Origin: Desulfobia sp.
GTDB taxonomy: Bacteria > Desulfobacterota > Desulfobulbia > Desulfobulbales > SURF-16
Direction: 5' to 3'
Assembly (NCBI GenBank): GCA_030608985.1
Contig: JAUWDC010000006.1
Span: 1-12,872, forward strand
DNA: 12,872 bases
The position numbers and the translations under genes were made by a program. Below the pieces are notes generated by a model. It ran no database searches, was not told the DNA's origin, and saw nothing but the letters and a program-made list of their open reading frames with translations. Positions 226-11,904 of this stretch are shown here, one piece after another (positions within the stretch are counted from its first letter, which is position 1; each line of letters starts with the position of its first letter).

Positions 226-717
226 ATGGCTGAAGAAAACGAAAATCAAGCTGCCGAGAATACAGAAGCTCCTGTTTTCAGAATGCAGAAAATGTACATC
301 AAGGATCTCTCTTTTGAAAACCCCAACTCTCCTGACATTTACTTGGGGAAACAAGAACCTAAAGTTGAAGTCAATCTTGGCCTCAAGAATAAAAAAATGG
401 AAAATGACCACTGGGAAATCGTGCTTTCGGTAACAGCAACTGTCAAAAACAGTGGAGAGGATGGTAAAACGCTTTTCATCATTGAACTGGAGCACGCCTC
501 GGTGTTTGTCATCAAAAACATTCCGGAAGAACATCTTCCAGCTGTTCTGGCCGTGGACTGCCCCTCTCTCCTCTTTCCATTCACCCGCCAAATTATCAGC
601 CAGGTTTCTGTTGACGGCGGCTTTATTCCCTTCCTGATGGAGCCGGTCAACTTTATGGCCCTCTTCCAAAATGCCCAGAAAAAGAAAGGGGATGAGGCGC
701 AACAGCAACAACAATAG
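226..717 (+). CDS. secB: Protein-export chaperone SecB
   Basis: This 163-residue protein matches SecB in length (about 150-165 aa) and sequence. SecB is a cytosolic tetramer that holds preproteins unfolded and passes them to SecA. Visible family features are the opening beta strand with YIKDLSFENP (residues 25-34), the central strand with HWEIVLSVTAT (65-75), and the helix/loop LLFPFTRQIISQVSVDGGF (about 115-133) followed by PVNFMALF (139-146). The ATG at 226 is preceded by AAAGGA at good spacing. The C-terminus is lysine-rich and ends in five glutamines, where E. coli SecB has its SecA-contacting tail. The gene follows uvrA on the same strand, probably with its own promoter, and ends 21 bp before a hairpin terminator. 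Confidence 0.95.
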   Translation: MAEENENQAAENTEAPVFRMQKMYIKDLSFENPNSPDIYLGKQEPKVEVNLGLKNKKMENDHWEIVLSVTATVKNSGEDGKTLFIIELEHASVFVIKNIPEEHLPAVLAVDCPSLLFPFTRQIISQVSVDGGFIPFLMEPVNFMALFQNAQKKKGDEAQQQQQ

Positions 718-845: not shown

Positions 846-2645
846 TTACTCACCTTCAAAGTTTTGGATAACAGGTCGAAGCATAATAACCAGCTCTCTT
901 TTACGACTGTCAACGCCATCCTGCTTAAAAAATTTGCTCCCGTAAGCAAGATCTTTCAGCCCTTTAATACCTGACTCGTCGTAACTATTTCTGGCGGAAA
1001 TTAAGCCGCCTATAACCAGTATATCCTTATCTTTCACCCTGACCAGAGTATTCATCTCCCGGACAGCTACAGTAGGAAGGGTAAGTGTCGTCCCTGCAAA
1101 TGTAAAATCATTAAAAGCCGTTATTTCCGACTCAATTGGAGTCAGATTCAGAATGACCTCATCATCCACAATATTAGCTATCACCCCAAGACCCAAACCT
1201 GAAAATACCTGGGATGTCGTCGGGGTCTGAGTAACTGTTCCATTATCACTGACTGTTGACTCAACTTCTGAAACATACTGGACACTCTCACCAACATTAA
1301 TTACCGCAGGCTGCCCATTCATAACCGTAATTTTAGGGTTGGCCAGGAGTTCTGTATGGCCCTGCTCCTCAATAAGGTCAAGTAGCAACGTGAAATCCTT
1401 GTCCCCCAATGTCAGGAAACGATTTTGGATCCCAGCGCTATGGTAAAGAGGATTGAGCTTCTGGAAATCAAGGGTAAAATCAAAATTAGCATTGCTCAGC
1501 AATGAATCCCAATTAATACCGGTTCTATTGTCCTCAGTCAGTTCAACCTCAACTATTTTCGCTTCAATAGTAACCTGGCGGTACAGCTCTTTTTTCAGAG
1601 TTTTAAAGTAACTGTCTGTTCGTTCCAGCACACCTCGAGGAGCAGTTACCGTAATGATACCCAGCGGTTTATCATAGGTAACCTGACCAAGAGCGCCTTT
1701 GCTCTTGGTCCTTTGCATTGCGACGACCTCTTCCGCACTCTTCTTTTTAGAAGCGTTATCTTTCTCCAGCCAAGGCCCGTCATCTGCTGGTGTATTACTC
1801 TCTGTATCTGTTAATACAATAGTATCCCTTCTTGATGTTTCTTCGTAGAGGCTCAGAATTTCAGCCAGGTTGTTTTCAACATTTTTCCAGACATCAAAAA
1901 CCTGATCATCCCGGCCTTTACTTTTCAGCAGGATAGTCCCTTCCAGGTCTCCGGCAGCTTCAGTTCCTTCACCTCCAAGCACATTGCCTCCAACAGCTAT
2001 TTCATATGTCGGTGTCATGTAAGGGAGGGCTAAATGGTATACTTTTGTCTGACGATATTTCACAATAATGCTGTTGCCGTCAACTTCATGGAAATAATCA
2101 AGCTGGCGCAACAGGTTATCGATAGACTCGAAAAAATCATCTTCTGCACGGATATCTACATCAACAAGAGCTCCCTGGTCGACATCATTTGCCCAGCTGA
2201 CATTCATACCTTTTAGCACAGCCAGCTTCTTCATTATCATGCGAAGAGCTACAGGTCCTGTATTTGAAGAAATATCAGCCCCGATGGGAATGATGATATC
2301 ATCCTCAAAACCAGAACCAGCACCAGTATCCATTTCACTGAGCAGATATGTTGGATTCTGGAAACGCGTCGGAAGCTCGACAGGCTTGCTGAGCAATGCC
2401 TGCCCATCAAATGCCTCGGCATTCAAGGCTCCAGCAGTATGCTTGTCAATAAACTGCTGGGCCTGCTCCTGGGATTGCTGGTAACCGGTATTTGTGGCCA
2501 TACAGCCGCTTATAAAGAGCGACAATAGCAGAATTGCACTGAGCCCAAGAGAGAATGGCCGACCGCCACTCTTTCGGTGCATCTGATTTTCTGCCGTGTA
2601 GGCCGACTTCATGCCACTGTCTGAACAAAATGTTTTTCTTTTCAT
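846..2645 (-). CDS. Type IV pilus / MSHA-type secretin, lipoprotein (MshL/PilQ C-terminal-like)
   Basis: This outer-membrane secretin, about 599 aa, forms the pilus exit channel. I chose the ATG at 2645 because GGAA lies 6 nt before it; a GTG at 2657 in the same frame has no good binding site. A long basic leader is followed by a hydrophobic segment and the lipobox I-S-G-C (Cys at about residue 48), so the mature protein should be lipidated. Residues about 130-196 look like a secretin N0/STN domain. About 315-365 (VTYDKPLGIITVTAP and on) is an N1-type repeat. About 370-590 is the beta-barrel secretin domain, with LLANPKITVMNGQPAVINVG, the VFSGLGLGVIANI strand and the signature VKDKDILVIGGLI followed by RELVIMLRPVI. 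It is the last gene of the pil operon, 39 nt after the PilQ-N/TPR gene. The pattern of STN domain, lipobox and secretin resembles MshL of MSHA pili. Confidence 0.9.
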   Translation of the reverse strand: MKRKTFCSDSGMKSAYTAENQMHRKSGGRPFSLGLSAILLLSLFISGCMATNTGYQQSQEQAQQFIDKHTAGALNAEAFDGQALLSKPVELPTRFQNPTYLLSEMDTGAGSGFEDDIIIPIGADISSNTGPVALRMIMKKLAVLKGMNVSWANDVDQGALVDVDIRAEDDFFESIDNLLRQLDYFHEVDGNSIIVKYRQTKVYHLALPYMTPTYEIAVGGNVLGGEGTEAAGDLEGTILLKSKGRDDQVFDVWKNVENNLAEILSLYEETSRRDTIVLTDTESNTPADDGPWLEKDNASKKKSAEEVVAMQRTKSKGALGQVTYDKPLGIITVTAPRGVLERTDSYFKTLKKELYRQVTIEAKIVEVELTEDNRTGINWDSLLSNANFDFTLDFQKLNPLYHSAGIQNRFLTLGDKDFTLLLDLIEEQGHTELLANPKITVMNGQPAVINVGESVQYVSEVESTVSDNGTVTQTPTTSQVFSGLGLGVIANIVDDEVILNLTPIESEITAFNDFTFAGTTLTLPTVAVREMNTLVRVKDKDILVIGGLISARNSYDESGIKGLKDLAYGSKFFKQDGVDSRKRELVIMLRPVIQNFEGE

Positions 2646-2684
2646 CTTTATTTCCACGTTTAAGAAAGAGACAGTAAAGGGTTA

Positions 2685-4538
2685 CTATTTCTGTATCCTA
2701 TTCTTGATAAATTTTTCGAGGTCACCCGGAATCGTATAACCGGAAAGCAAAATTGCTTGGTATTCCTGATCTGCCTGGGCTGTATTGCCAAACTTGTCAT
2801 AGATCCGCGCCTTGCTGATCATAGTTTCAACAGAGCCTGAATACAATGCTTCGTAACGCATTAACAGAGACAGTGCCATCTCAAGGCTGTTGTTCTGTTC
2901 ACTAAAGGCAGCGTAACTGGCCAATGCCTGGCGAGACGGACTGCTGCCTGATACAGCACGTTCAAAATAATCCCTTGCCTCTACCACCTGCTCCATATTG
3001 GCAAGACTCAAAGCCGTCTGCAATGCTGCACCAGCATCTTCAGGGTTCAATTTTACCGCAATACGGCCATAATGTGCAGCCTTGGCATTCAGACCCATTT
3101 TAATAAGGGCAAGTGATGCGATTTTTTTGGCTAGATTGCCATTATCCGGAGAAGCTCGAAAAGCCTTTTCATACCGGGCAAGAGCTCCCTGGTAATCCCC
3201 TGCTTTTTCCATATCAGAAGCCTGCCTGACAAGTTTCTTTGCCGCAATTCTTTCTTTCGGCACATCAAGCCGTTTGGTAACAGAGATTGCTTCCTTTTTG
3301 ATTTCCAGCTCATCCCGAAGCCTGACCGGCCAGTTGAATTTTTTGTCTTTCTTGGAGATGACAATAGTATTATATCTCTCTTCCTTGGCCAGGCCCTTCA
3401 GGTTCATAATGACATCCAGGACAAAATCCCATGGCACATCATTTAACGCCAGAGTAAGTGAACCGCCGACCCCCTGGTCAACTACAATATTTCGGCCACT
3501 AATTTCACCGATGAGGCGGAACACATTGTGAAGATCTATTTTATAAAAGTCTACGGAAATTCTTTCCTCTGTATAGCCGGTAAATACAGAATCATCGTCT
3601 GCGGCTTTCGACTTTGCCACCGAGGCGGAGGATTTTTTCTTCTTTGAAGCCGGCAGGGATACAGCTCGTTTTATAGCTTTTTCTTCTTTAACCGGATTCT
3701 GCAATGCAGCGACTTCACCAAAAGGAATCCCGGTGATACCGGCAACAATTGCGGCGGTATTCTGCTTAGGAGGCTCCACCCTGATGAGAAGCCCCTCGTC
3801 ATAACTCTTTATGTCGTAGGTAAACAGTGCGTCATGCAATGAGTCGATAGAGACTCGGGCTTTTCCTTTGTACGGCCGGACTCTTACAAGAGAAACAACC
3901 GATGAAGTTTCTCCAGGGACAGCAATTTCCCTTGTCTTAACACTATCAATATCAACGATCAGCCTGGCAGGACGACCTTCTGCTTTCGCAAGCTCTATTG
4001 TCTTACAGCCCTTAATTGGCTCGCCCGCTTTAAGATAAATATTTGTATAGCCGACACCAGGCTCTACAGACACTTCTTGTATTTGCGGCTTTTCGGCAGC
4101 CTTCTCTTTCACAGACTCTGGAGAAGATTTTGCAAACTGCACAAGAATATTGTTGCCGTTAATATTTACAGCGTATTGACTCTTTTCTTTCAAGGTCAAT
4201 TCAAAACGAAGAACAGCTGGGTCTTGATTGGTGACCATTGTCCCAGCCACAGAAGAAAGCGGCCCTTGTTCAGGGTGCCTGGGCAGTACAACATCTTTTC
4301 CTAATACACCACCGGCAATATCAATGACAACTCGATGTGGATTAAAAAGTTCATACTGTGTGTATGTGGGCACCCCACTGCCCTTAATATGCAAGCCCCA
4401 ACCATTTTCAGTCACCTGATCTTCAAGCCCTGTAACCTGATAGGAGTCTTGAGCTGCCTGAACCACGGTGCTTGATGCGTAGCTCACTGCTAAAAAAGCA
4501 ATCAGAATACATGTTTTTATACGAGACATCAGGGTCAT
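2685..4538 (-). CDS. PilQ N-terminal-like protein (AMIN-AMIN-N0) with C-terminal TPR region
   Basis: This is a 617-aa exported protein. The ATG at 4538 is preferred: it follows the pilP stop by 1 nt, has a GGGGGA site upstream, and begins a signal peptide (cleavage near VQA-AQ, residues 28-29). The open frame extends to 4712 but would overlap pilP. In order: AMIN domain about 34-136, second AMIN domain about 155-256, a basic low-complexity linker about 285-315 with KKKKS, an N0/STN domain about 327-398 (VDFYKIDLHNVFRLIGEISG and NDVPWDFVLDVIM, as in PilQ), then tetratricopeptide-like helices about 433-600. AMIN domains bind peptidoglycan and N0 contacts PilP in known PilQ. The secretin domain is absent and follows as the next gene. 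The TPR part recalls pilotins such as PilF/PilW/Tgl, so the protein may anchor and help assemble the secretin. That role is inference. Confidence 0.88.
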   Translation of the reverse strand: MTLMSRIKTCILIAFLAVSYASSTVVQAAQDSYQVTGLEDQVTENGWGLHIKGSGVPTYTQYELFNPHRVVIDIAGGVLGKDVVLPRHPEQGPLSSVAGTMVTNQDPAVLRFELTLKEKSQYAVNINGNNILVQFAKSSPESVKEKAAEKPQIQEVSVEPGVGYTNIYLKAGEPIKGCKTIELAKAEGRPARLIVDIDSVKTREIAVPGETSSVVSLVRVRPYKGKARVSIDSLHDALFTYDIKSYDEGLLIRVEPPKQNTAAIVAGITGIPFGEVAALQNPVKEEKAIKRAVSLPASKKKKSSASVAKSKAADDDSVFTGYTEERISVDFYKIDLHNVFRLIGEISGRNIVVDQGVGGSLTLALNDVPWDFVLDVIMNLKGLAKEERYNTIVISKKDKKFNWPVRLRDELEIKKEAISVTKRLDVPKERIAAKKLVRQASDMEKAGDYQGALARYEKAFRASPDNGNLAKKIASLALIKMGLNAKAAHYGRIAVKLNPEDAGAALQTALSLANMEQVVEARDYFERAVSGSSPSRQALASYAAFSEQNNSLEMALSLLMRYEALYSGSVETMISKARIYDKFGNTAQADQEYQAILLSGYTIPGDLEKFIKNRIQK

Positions 4539-4539
4539 T

Positions 4540-5109
4540 TTACTGTTCCCCCTCTTTCTTAAGAAGCATTTCCACAAGCCTGTACCGTTCTTCCCCCGCA
4601 GTATCTTTATACTGCTGCTTAATAACGACAAGATTTTTAGAAATTTTATTAACGATACCGGTTCTGCCCAGTGCATTGCCTTCACGAAGAACATATCCGA
4701 TGCCAACGGCATCCTGAACCATTGCCATGGGACCTCCTTCAGTCATTAGTATAGCTGCAAGAGTCAGCTGTCCGGGCTCAAACCTGCGCATTCCGGTCAA
4801 CTCCTCTTCCTCTCCAGCCTCTTCCTCCTGAACAACTCTCTCGGAGACAAAGGGCATAAACGGGTCAGATCGCCCTTCACGTTTATACACAAAAGGATCT
4901 GTCTCTCCGCTCAAAAACTGAATCAGCTCTTTCACTTTTGCAGAGTGCTCTTCAGCAGATACTTCCGGTGTGATAGATGCTTGGTCTCCATTTCCATTCG
5001 TTTTCACAGCCAATGCATTTTGGCCAAGCAAAATGGAACACACCACCAGAACAGAGCATAATGCCCTAGGCATAGTGAAAGAAATTTTTTTTCTATAGTT
5101 CTTATTCAT
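4540..5109 (-). CDS. pilP: Type IV pilus alignment-complex protein PilP
   Basis: About 189 aa from the ATG at 5109. The frame stays open upstream to 5208, but that stretch overlaps pilO and encodes a very basic sequence, while 5109 begins a signal sequence (MNKNYRKKIS, then a hydrophobic core up to GQNALA). PilP is a periplasmic protein that binds the PilN/PilO dimer and the N0 domain of PilQ. The family motif S-D-P-F-x-P-F is present as RSDPFMPFVS. A beta-rich C-terminal half follows, with LTLAAILM, VGIGYVLREGNALG and a final KISKNLVVI strand, typical of the HR domain. There is no proper lipobox: the only cysteines lie inside the hydrophobic core and are not preceded by G/A/S in the required pattern. 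Most PilPs are lipoproteins, so this one may be a plain secreted protein. It sits 31 nt after pilO and 1 nt before the next gene. Confidence 0.87.
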   Translation of the reverse strand: MNKNYRKKISFTMPRALCSVLVVCSILLGQNALAVKTNGNGDQASITPEVSAEEHSAKVKELIQFLSGETDPFVYKREGRSDPFMPFVSERVVQEEEAGEEEELTGMRRFEPGQLTLAAILMTEGGPMAMVQDAVGIGYVLREGNALGRTGIVNKISKNLVVIKQQYKDTAGEERYRLVEMLLKKEGEQ

Positions 5110-5140: not shown

Positions 5141-5800
5141 TTATTTTCTCTTTCTACCCTTTTTCTTTTTTGACTTTTTCTTCTTATCGACATTTTCCGA
5201 CGGTTCAATGAACCGGTAGGTAATCAGCCTAAAACCGGTATTGAGCATCATCTCTCCAGCCTCTTTTTTCGGTCCGCCGATAGAAATGTTATCAACATTG
5301 ACTATACGGGACAGCTTACTGATTTTATCAAGGAAAACGCCAACATTATGGTAAGGCCCCCGAACCTTGATATCTACTGGAATTTCAGCATAAAATTCTC
5401 TCGGAATTTCCTTTTTCGGCGTAAATGACAAAAAATCCAGGCCGGAATTCGTTCCATGATCGGATATCGATGTGAGAAGAGCCGGAATTTCCTGCTTCTG
5501 GGGTAACAGGCTGGATGCTTGAACAAAAAGTGCTTTTGTTTCGGCCATATCCGCCCGATGGTTGTCGATCTCTGAAGCAATCTTCTCAACCCTTTTAATC
5601 TCTTTCTGCAGTTTCTTTTCCTGTTTAGTAAGCTGTCCAATTTCTTCACTTTTCGCTGTGTAAACCAAGAAATAGAAAGCTACTGCAGGGATAATAACAG
5701 CGGCAACACAAATTAAAATTTTATGTTTAACGTTAAGCGCCGATGTCTTATCGATAAATTTATCTATAGATTCTTGAACCTGGGCTTGCTTTGCACTCAT
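5141..5800 (-). CDS. pilO: Type IV pilus inner-membrane protein PilO
   Basis: This 219-aa bitopic membrane protein dimerises with PilN to link cytoplasmic PilM to periplasmic PilP. One membrane segment is seen at about 28-48 (ILICVAAVIIPAVAFYFLVY), then a charged coiled coil at about 50-80 (SEEIGQLTKQEKKLQKEIKR) and a ferredoxin-like periplasmic domain with FYAEIPVDIKVRGPYHNVGVF at about 135-155, a segment diagnostic for PilO. The start ATG overlaps the pilN stop by 4 bp (ATGA), and GGGGA precedes it, so translation is probably coupled. The C-terminal 15 residues are almost all lysine and arginine with a few serines, an extension most PilO proteins do not have. Confidence 0.9.
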   Translation of the reverse strand: MSAKQAQVQESIDKFIDKTSALNVKHKILICVAAVIIPAVAFYFLVYTAKSEEIGQLTKQEKKLQKEIKRVEKIASEIDNHRADMAETKALFVQASSLLPQKQEIPALLTSISDHGTNSGLDFLSFTPKKEIPREFYAEIPVDIKVRGPYHNVGVFLDKISKLSRIVNVDNISIGGPKKEAGEMMLNTGFRLITYRFIEPSENVDKKKKSKKKKGRKRK

Positions 5801-11454: not shown

Positions 11455-11551
11455 TTAGAAATTACGAATTACGAATTATGAATTATGAATTGTCGGTACA
11501 TATTCTATTCAGAACAGTACATTTCATTCGTAATTTCTAATTCGTAATTAA
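11451..11551. repeat. Heptanucleotide (GAATTAC-type) inverted-repeat element between convergent genes
   Basis: A perfect 17-bp inverted repeat (11453-11469 with 11526-11542) is built from GAATTAC-like units. The left side continues as four 7-bp units (11466-11472 gaattac, 11473-11479 and 11480-11486 gaattat, 11487-11493 gaattgt). The whole is bounded by TTAATTA (11451-11457) and TAATTAA (11545-11551). The stops of both convergent genes, pyrC TAA at 11452-11454 and the flagellar-like TAA at 11548-11550, fall in these two borders. It fills the entire gap and contains no GC-rich hairpin, so it is not a standard terminator. Confidence 0.85.
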
Positions 11552-11904
11552 GTTATCATATCAATAAGATAACCTGTCATCTCATCTCCGATCTGCAACA
11601 TCTTTATATTTGCCTGAAAGTTTCTCTTGTTTATCATCGCCTGGGGAATTTCCTCAACAAGATCTACATTGGATTTTTCCACTACCGTGCTTCCCTCGGC
11701 TGTTTGCTCATAGACCTGGGATCCTGGAGTCTCTATTTTTTCAACATGGGGAGTAACGGTGCCGTTTTCTCCCTCGTAAAACGTAACCCGTGTTTTCTTA
11801 AACTCATCTGTATTGACATTGGCAACGTTATTGGCAATAGACTCCTGTTTCTTTTGAAAACCCTGCAAGGCAGAGAGAGTGGAATTAATTCCCGAAGAAA
11901 TCAT
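11548..11904 (-). CDS. Short flagellar basal-body rod / FlgC-like protein, orphan
   Basis: This 118-aa protein has both ends of the flagellar rod/hook family. An N-terminal FLG_bb_rod segment (residues about 4-40) contains the hallmark ANNVANVNTDEFK. A C-terminal segment (about 78-116) contains NVDLVEEIPQAMINKRNFQA and an MLQIGDEM-type helix. It is slightly shorter than FlgB or FlgC (about 130-150 aa), and the middle is only a short strand region. No other flagellar gene is in the window. The ATG overlaps the topA TGA (ATGA) and has a strong GGAGG (11912-11916) 7 nt upstream, so it is co-transcribed and probably translationally coupled with topA. It could be a true rod protein encoded away from the main locus, or a relative with another job. 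Its stop is contributed by the border of the heptamer repeat. Confidence 0.82.
   Translation of the reverse strand: MISSGINSTLSALQGFQKKQESIANNVANVNTDEFKKTRVTFYEGENGTVTPHVEKIETPGSQVYEQTAEGSTVVEKSNVDLVEEIPQAMINKRNFQANIKMLQIGDEMTGYLIDMIT

What the first reader, a model, noticed from the sequence alone, without database searches (positions are those of the whole stretch)
846..4538. PilQ functions divided between an AMIN-AMIN-N0-TPR protein and a separate MshL-like lipoprotein secretin
In standard pilMNOPQ operons PilQ is one polypeptide: AMIN domains, N0, N1, secretin. Here the PilQ-type N-terminus with its N0 domain ends in a TPR region, and the secretin is a second gene with its own N0-like domain and a lipobox. 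The machine would then have two N0-like domains on different proteins, a peptidoglycan-binding subunit carrying pilotin-like TPRs, and a self-lipidated secretin that might not need a separate pilotin. The domain layout is read from the sequence; the assembly model is inference.
Basis: partly seen in the sequence, partly recalled or inferred. Interest (0 to 1): 0.72.

Follow-up and report, generated by a model that had tools for sequence, protein, structure and literature searches.

The report
Pilus channel swapped, docking part kept
In these sulfur-cycling bacteria the usual one-piece outer-membrane gate of the type IV pilus appears to have been replaced by a gate from a different pilus type plus a separate linker protein that keeps the old gate's docking part, which would show how a core piece of a molecular machine can be exchanged.

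Summary
In a pilMNOP operon of a Desulfobulbales bacterium the PilQ position holds two genes: an AMIN-AMIN-N0-TPR protein (2685-4538) and a lipobox secretin with its own N0 (846-2657). It is no error: 66 of 80 named loci show the full order and the other 14 are cut by contig ends; the pair occurs in 29 of 296 genomes sampled from the phylum.

"PilQ functions divided" needs correction. The secretin is not PilQ's C-terminus: it groups with MshL-type secretins of MSHA-like loci (100/100), and a clade with PilQ is rejected (AU p 1.2e-5). The linker's N0 is PilQ-type (56-72 bits on 9 of 9 PilQ, no match to its partner secretins). Its TPR is closest to the MshN-like TPR gene of MSHA-like loci, the best hit of the genome in 6 of 7 genomes. 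So a T4aP machine swapped secretins and kept PilQ's presumed PilP-docking domain on an adaptor. Relative G032 (99% complete) has no other secretin, yet has PilT and PilB. Docking and TPR-secretin binding are inferred; no complex was modelled.

The parts
2685..4538 (-). Adaptor gene: AMIN-AMIN-N0-TPR protein, 617 aa, at the PilQ position of the operon
4131..4442 (-). AMIN domain 1 (residues 33-136)
   Evidence: Pfam PF11741 32.3 bits; beta-sandwich in the model
3774..4076 (-). Second AMIN-like beta-sandwich (residues 155-255)
   Evidence: model only, no Pfam hit
3351..3563 (-). PilQ-type N0 domain (residues 326-396), the most conserved domain of the adaptor
   Evidence: TIGR02515 62 bits; PilQ chains; mean column entropy 0.57 bits
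2691..3257 (-). TPR domain (residues 428-616), nearest to the MshN-like TPR protein of MSHA-like loci
   Evidence: Pfam TPR_2; model; rank in whole genomes
846..2657 (-). Secretin of the MshL side, 603 aa, predicted lipoprotein
2502..2513 (-). Lipobox ISGC of the secretin
   Evidence: read from sequence; strict motif in 71 of 78 named relatives
2034..2294 (-). The secretin's own N0 domain (residues 122-208)
   Evidence: structure model and VIA matches
867..1373 (-). Secretin pore domain PF00263
   Evidence: (108.9 bits)
4540..5109 (-). pilP (start inferred; the ORF runs to 5208), expected partner of the adaptor's N0
   Evidence: PF04351 28.9 bits, cut-off 25.6
5141..5800 (-). pilO
   Evidence: PF04350 144.6 bits
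5797..6381 (-). pilN
   Evidence: PF05137 69.5 bits
6555..7598 (-). pilM
   Evidence: PF11104 260.9 bits

Best explanation
A type IVa pilus machine whose PilQ secretin was displaced by an MshL-type secretin. SHOWN by sequence: the operon is pilM-N-O-P, then an adaptor, then the secretin; the adaptor carries PilQ's AMIN and N0 domains but no pore; its C-terminus is a TPR domain nearest to the MshN-like TPR protein encoded near the MshL-type gene in MSHA-like loci of the same phylum; the secretin is of the MshL clade, has a lipobox and its own N0, and ends 3-4 residues after the last strand in most relatives. INFERRED: the adaptor's N0 docks on PilP, as PilQ's N0 does in Neisseria; the AMIN domains, where present, hold peptidoglycan; the TPR grips the MshL-type ring, so that the inner-membrane PilMNOP complex is aligned with a foreign outer-membrane pore; the secretin's own lipid helps it reach the outer membrane. 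N0+TPR looks like the minimal adaptor. The exchange probably happened once within the phylum.
For: Order PilM-N-O-P-adaptor-secretin complete in 66 of 80 named loci, the other 14 cut by contig ends but consistent. In 296 phylum genomes the adaptor (N0-TPR match reaching position 600 or beyond) is in 29, and the same 29 hold the matching secretin: 28 with one match of 409 bits or more, G152 in two pieces of 341 and 226; the next best, 368 bits, lie in MSHA-like loci (by its larger piece alone G152 would rank below four of those). Nine loci chosen because they hold a fused PilQ carry it right after pilP, the same place. Tree: 24 secretins one clade (100/99), joined with 8 MshL-type secretins 100/100; one clade with PilQ rejected, AU p 1.2e-5. 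Of those 8, six pass NCBI's MshL cut-off and two miss it by 1-3 bits; 10 of 10 outgroup rows pass GspD. Adaptor N0 profile: 9 of 9 fused PilQ 56-72 bits, MshL-type 0-16, partner secretins no match. N0 entropy 0.57 bits (first strand and helix, the side that PilP binds in PMC3441751, 0.39) against 2.04-2.09 (AMIN) and 1.53 (TPR). TPR profile: in 6 of 7 genomes with an MSHA-like locus and no adaptor the best hit of the genome is that locus's TPR gene. G032, 99% complete, has one PF00263 match, this secretin, plus PilT and a PilB over NCBI's cut-off. Own genome: PilT and a PilB fragment (531 bits).
Against: No interaction was tested; two chains could not be modelled together. The secretin keeps its own conserved N0 (entropy 0.95), which might bind PilP directly and leave the adaptor with another job. 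V. cholerae mshN deletion does not lower MshA pilus production (passages of PMC4624765), so MshN need not be essential for MshL. TPR resemblance to the MSHA-like proteins is 42-62 bits; TPRs are easily alike, and in the seventh genome (G049, contig cut) the best hit was elsewhere. The window's secretin is below the MshL equivalog cut-off (217 of 250 bits). The own genome is 70.5% complete. One MshL-type row (L169) stands on a long branch and its locus shows no confirmed ATPase.
Confidence: 0.62

Rival explanations
1. The secretin docks PilP through its own N0, and the adaptor is an accessory: a peptidoglycan anchor or MshN-like stabiliser whose N0 plays a lesser part.
For: The secretin has its own conserved N0; in V. 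cholerae mshN is dispensable for MshA pili (passages).
Against: The adaptor's N0 is its most conserved domain and is found in 10 of 10 distant members, of which 2 have a Pfam AMIN hit; adaptor and matching secretin occur in the same 29 of 296 genomes.
Confidence: 0.25
2. PilQ gene fission: the secretin is PilQ's own C-terminal half and the TPR was added later.
For: Same operon place as fused PilQ.
Against: Secretin tree: MshL side 100/100; one clade with PilQ rejected, AU p 1.2e-5. Core profile of the secretin: 201-271 bits on 8 MshL-type, 72-95 on 9 fused PilQ.
Confidence: 0.02
3. The two genes serve an MSHA pilus or another system, and the T4aP uses another secretin.
For: 35 of 38 genomes (own group and relatives) have more than one PF00263 match; many have a PilQ-like one in frames of about 460-590 aa.
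Against: The two operons of that PilQ-like secretin that were scanned hold their own AAA, T2SSE-MshEN and T2SSF genes. G032 has no other secretin but has PilB and PilT. The pair is contiguous with pilMNOP.
Confidence: 0.08
4. Assembly or annotation artefact.
For: The source is a fragmented genome, 327 contigs.
Against: 80 of 80 named loci consistent; 81% identical adaptor in Ca. Desulfobia pelagia.
Confidence: 0.005

Closest known systems
PilQ of type IVa pili (M. xanthus, N. meningitidis)
   Same: AMIN and N0 domains; operon position after pilP
   Different: no pore in the adaptor; it ends in TPR; the pore is a separate MshL-type protein
MshL, secretin of MSHA pili
   Same: pore clade, best NCBIfam model, lipobox
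   Different: encoded with pilMNOP, in genomes with PilB and PilT; below the MshL cut-off in the window
MshN (TPR protein of MSHA pili; homologue of TadD according to passages of PMC6668835)
   Same: nearest TPR domain in whole genomes
   Different: the MshN-like proteins here have a membrane helix before the TPR; the adaptor has AMIN-N0 instead
TadD-RcpA (passages of PMC10499894) and PilF-PilQ (recalled)
   Different: TadD is a predicted lipoprotein (PilF too, recalled); here the lipobox is on the secretin
BfpB, type IVb lipoprotein secretin
   Different: a type IVb system; pore not sampled in the tree

Membership tests
PilQ | AMIN domain | tested here: met
   adaptor, PF11741 32.3 bits
PilQ | PilQ-type N0 | tested here: met
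   adaptor
PilQ | pore in the same chain, TIGR02515 over its cut-off | tested here: not met
   adaptor 62 bits, secretin 78 bits, cut-off 284
MshL | clade with MshL-type secretins of MSHA-like loci | tested here: met
   100/100; 6 of those 8 pass NCBI's MshL cut-off; no experimentally studied MshL was in the tree
MshL | TIGR02519 equivalog cut-off 250.2 bits | tested here: not met
   window 217.2 bits; 53 of 53 aligned secretins match it at E 1e-5 or better, but how many pass the cut-off was not counted
MshL | in an operon with an MSHA ATPase and platform gene | tested here: not met
   contiguous with pilMNOP instead
MshN | nearest TPR in whole genomes | tested here: met
   6 of 7 genomes
MshN | membrane helix directly before the TPR part | tested here: not met
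   AMIN-N0 instead
Type IVa pilus | PilMNOP operon | tested here: met
Type IVa pilus | PilB and PilT motors | tested here: met
   PilT over cut-off at G000:C228; PilB fragment at G000:C75, 531 bits over half the model, best family PilB; sister genome G001 754 bits, cut-off 676
TPR pilotin (PilF/PilW/TadD) | TPR fold like PilF | tested here: inconclusive
TPR pilotin (PilF/PilW/TadD) | lipoprotein | tested here: not met
   no lipobox seen by eye at the adaptor's N-terminus in the window; the lipobox is on the secretin
TPR pilotin (PilF/PilW/TadD) | needed for secretin assembly | not testable with these tools
   needs a deletion or co-expression

The most novel reading that the evidence does not exclude
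A modular secretin exchange: a T4aP lineage replaced PilQ's pore by an MSHA-type pore and bridged the mismatch by fusing PilQ's PilP-docking N0 to the MSHA secretin's own TPR partner, making a dedicated trans-periplasmic adaptor with two N0 tiers in one machine. The N0-TPR adaptor would be a new class of T4P component.
Probability: 0.55. Interest if true: 0.78.

Novelty: new variant of a known kind. Interest (0 to 1): 0.64.

Why it matters
[quoted passage not shown] Here a clade appears to run a T4aP on another system's secretin, which makes the question 'what must a secretin keep in order to serve a pilus?' testable: perhaps the PilP-docking N0 rather than the pore or the peptidoglycan domains. 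It may also explain a reported gap: the Dissulfurimicrobium hydrothermale genome paper says that PilQ is not encoded although pilM, pilB, pilC and pilT are (passages of PMC8780430), while a protein of this adaptor family is recorded for Dissulfurimicrobium sp. as 'tetratricopeptide repeat protein'. That strain's own genome was not examined by name.

Tried and rejected
Gene fission of PilQ: rejected by the secretin tree. Reciprocal swap (the PilQ-like second secretin having moved into an MSHA operon): not supported; the ATPases of three of its four operons form a clade apart from the MSHA-like ATPases, the fourth (L142) groups loosely near PilB (quick tree; its L169 row was a wrong ORF on a very long branch and was ignored). 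A conserved C-terminal peptide of the secretin as TPR ligand, as RcpA-TadD would suggest: tails are 3-4 residues in most, no motif seen beyond the last strand. TPR as a specific PilF/PilW relative: tied with generic TPRs. Misses of the adaptor among 38 genomes (34 strong, G005 and G021 weak, G007 and G037 none): in G005, G007 and G021 the contig ends within 1.1 kb downstream of pilM; G037 has no pilM. In the search beyond the phylum the 120 proteins listed of 132 had few names, those named being Deltaproteobacteria or Thermodesulfobacteriota; this is no systematic test of other phyla. Papers: listings showed no title or abstract start that describes this arrangement (one search listed 20 of 95, 15 of 459, one search found none); only open-licence papers are searched.
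Full report
What is there. The window (G000:C226, a 70.5% complete genome) holds pilM, pilN, pilO, pilP, then the adaptor (2685-4538) and the secretin (846-2657), all on the minus strand. The nearest named record is Candidatus Desulfobia pelagia (81% identical adaptor); records with the same operon are titled Desulfobulbaceae, Desulfocapsa, Desulfobulbales and the like, so I take the order to be Desulfobulbales. Adaptor domains: AMIN by Pfam, PilQ-type N0 by TIGR02515 (62 bits) and by PilQ chains in the PDB (E down to 3e-26), TPR by Pfam. The AlphaFold model shows two beta-sandwiches, N0 and 11 TPR-type helices; its first Foldseek row is M. xanthus PilQ (an architectural model) over 428 columns, E 5e-13 but TM only 0.15-0.22 because the domains are loose, and the other rows shown are TPR proteins. 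The secretin has a lipobox, its own N0 and an MshL-like pore; best structural match BfpB.

Conservation. Of 195 relatives found in named genomes the best 80 were kept. Of these 80, 66 show PilM-N-O-P-adaptor-secretin in full and 14 are cut by contig ends but consistent. A strict lipobox is met in 71 of 78 secretins; of the 7 misses one called start lay too far upstream, one is masked by X, five have near-boxes. Of 38 genomes (own and relatives) 34 have a strong adaptor hit; three of the four misses are contig breaks just after pilM and the fourth lacks pilM. In 296 genomes drawn from the phylum the adaptor with TPR is in 29 (12 of the order, 17 outside), and the same 29 have the matching secretin: 28 with a single match of 409 bits or more, G152 with two pieces of 341 and 226; the next best is 368 bits, from MSHA-like loci. 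Both tables list the best matches only. Eleven distant split loci were read and all show pilP, adaptor and secretin where the contig allows (L156 ends before the secretin); nine loci chosen for a fused PilQ (616-1030 aa) have it in the same place.

Origin of the secretin. A tree of 55 pore domains puts 24 of these secretins in one clade (100/99), joined with 8 MshL-type secretins (100/100) and away from 9 fused PilQ; forcing them with PilQ costs 122 log units (AU p 1.2e-5). Cautions: the outgroup rows are not one side of a branch, and one MshL-type row (L169) and one second-system row (L142) are long. Six of the 8 MshL-type rows pass NCBI's MshL cut-off, the other two miss it by 1-3 bits; all 10 GspD rows pass the GspD cut-off. 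Their loci: an ATPase of the T2SSE family is confirmed by Pfam in L162, L163 and L168 and by clade in L164-L167; a platform gene by NCBIfam in L162; L169 has the secretin directly followed by a TPR gene, no ATPase confirmed. Of the pil-operon secretins 53 of 53 aligned match TIGR02519 at E 1e-5 or better, and 11 of the 120 homologues listed bear an NCBI name with MshL, most having no name.

Origin of the adaptor. Its N0 profile scores 56-72 bits on 9 of 9 fused PilQ, 20-30 on 4 second-system secretins, 0-16 on 8 MshL-type, 0-19 on 30 GspD-like, and gives no match on the partner secretins scored. N0 is its most conserved domain (0.57 bits entropy; 0.39 on the first strand and helix); in N. meningitidis that side of N0 binds PilP (passages of PMC3441751). 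The TPR profile was run over 11 whole genomes: in seven with an MSHA-like locus and no adaptor, the best hit is the TPR gene within 9 kb of the MshL-type gene in five (42-62 bits), and in a sixth (G247) it lies on another contig beside two genes that match neighbours of that locus in G209; in the seventh (G049) the contig ends and the best hit is elsewhere. The five TPR proteins checked have a membrane helix before the TPR part, as I recall for MshN; that MshN is a TPR protein and TadD's homologue is in PMC6668835 and PMC10499894 (passages). AMIN is not universal: among 10 distant adaptors Pfam finds AMIN in 2, N0 in 10 (E up to 1e-3; 5 over the PF21305 cut-off), TPR in 9; L148 aligns with the AMIN-bearing ones at its N-terminus and may hold an undetected one.

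Which machine. PilT is in 37 of 38 genomes, own included. PilB: four relatives (G001, G024, G031, G032) pass NCBI's PilB cut-off, the own genome holds a fragment whose best family is PilB; these five form a clade next to PilB of three fused-PilQ genomes (quick tree, SH-aLRT only). G032 has a single PF00263 match, this secretin. 35 of 38 genomes have further secretins: GspD, and often a PilQ-like one in a frame of about 460-590 aa, which in the two operons scanned sits with AAA, T2SSE-MshEN and T2SSF genes and in the tree groups with PilQ.

Mechanism. Shown: composition, conservation, shared occurrence, descent of the parts. Inferred: N0-PilP docking, TPR-secretin contact, self-lipidation in place of a pilotin. 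Against: the secretin's own N0, and the dispensability of mshN for pili in V. cholerae (passages of PMC4624765).

Novelty. A new variant of a known kind: a T4aP machine with a displaced secretin and an adaptor. The listings of nine paper searches showed no description. A paper on Dissulfurimicrobium hydrothermale reports pilM, pilB, pilC and pilT but no PilQ (passages and section 14 of PMC8780430); the adaptor family is recorded for that genus, which may explain the gap.

Noticed in passing
window 11548-11904 (-): A 118-aa protein with just the two ends of a flagellar rod protein (Flg_bb_rod and Flg_bbr_C), beside a gene that looks like topA by eye.
   Followed up: partly
L142 (G001), L143 (G024), L144 (G023), L145 (G030): A second, PilQ-like secretin without room for AMIN domains lies in T2SS- or MSHA-like operons of the same order; system type unclear.
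   Followed up: partly
window 226-717 (+): secB lies convergent to the secretin gene, 128 bases from its end.
   Followed up: no
G037: A member of the order (1.7 Mb, rated 100% complete) lacks pilM and the adaptor but keeps PilT and one secretin in a frame of 566 aa.
   Followed up: no
L109: A contig labelled uncultured Chlorobiaceae carries this operon; probably a mislabelled bin.
   Followed up: no
L147-L161: Most distant adaptors have no Pfam-detectable AMIN domain; the N0-TPR core is about 300 residues.
   Followed up: yes
L118, L122, L114: Adaptor, pilM and secretin genes respectively broken into two frames, probably assembly errors.
   Followed up: no
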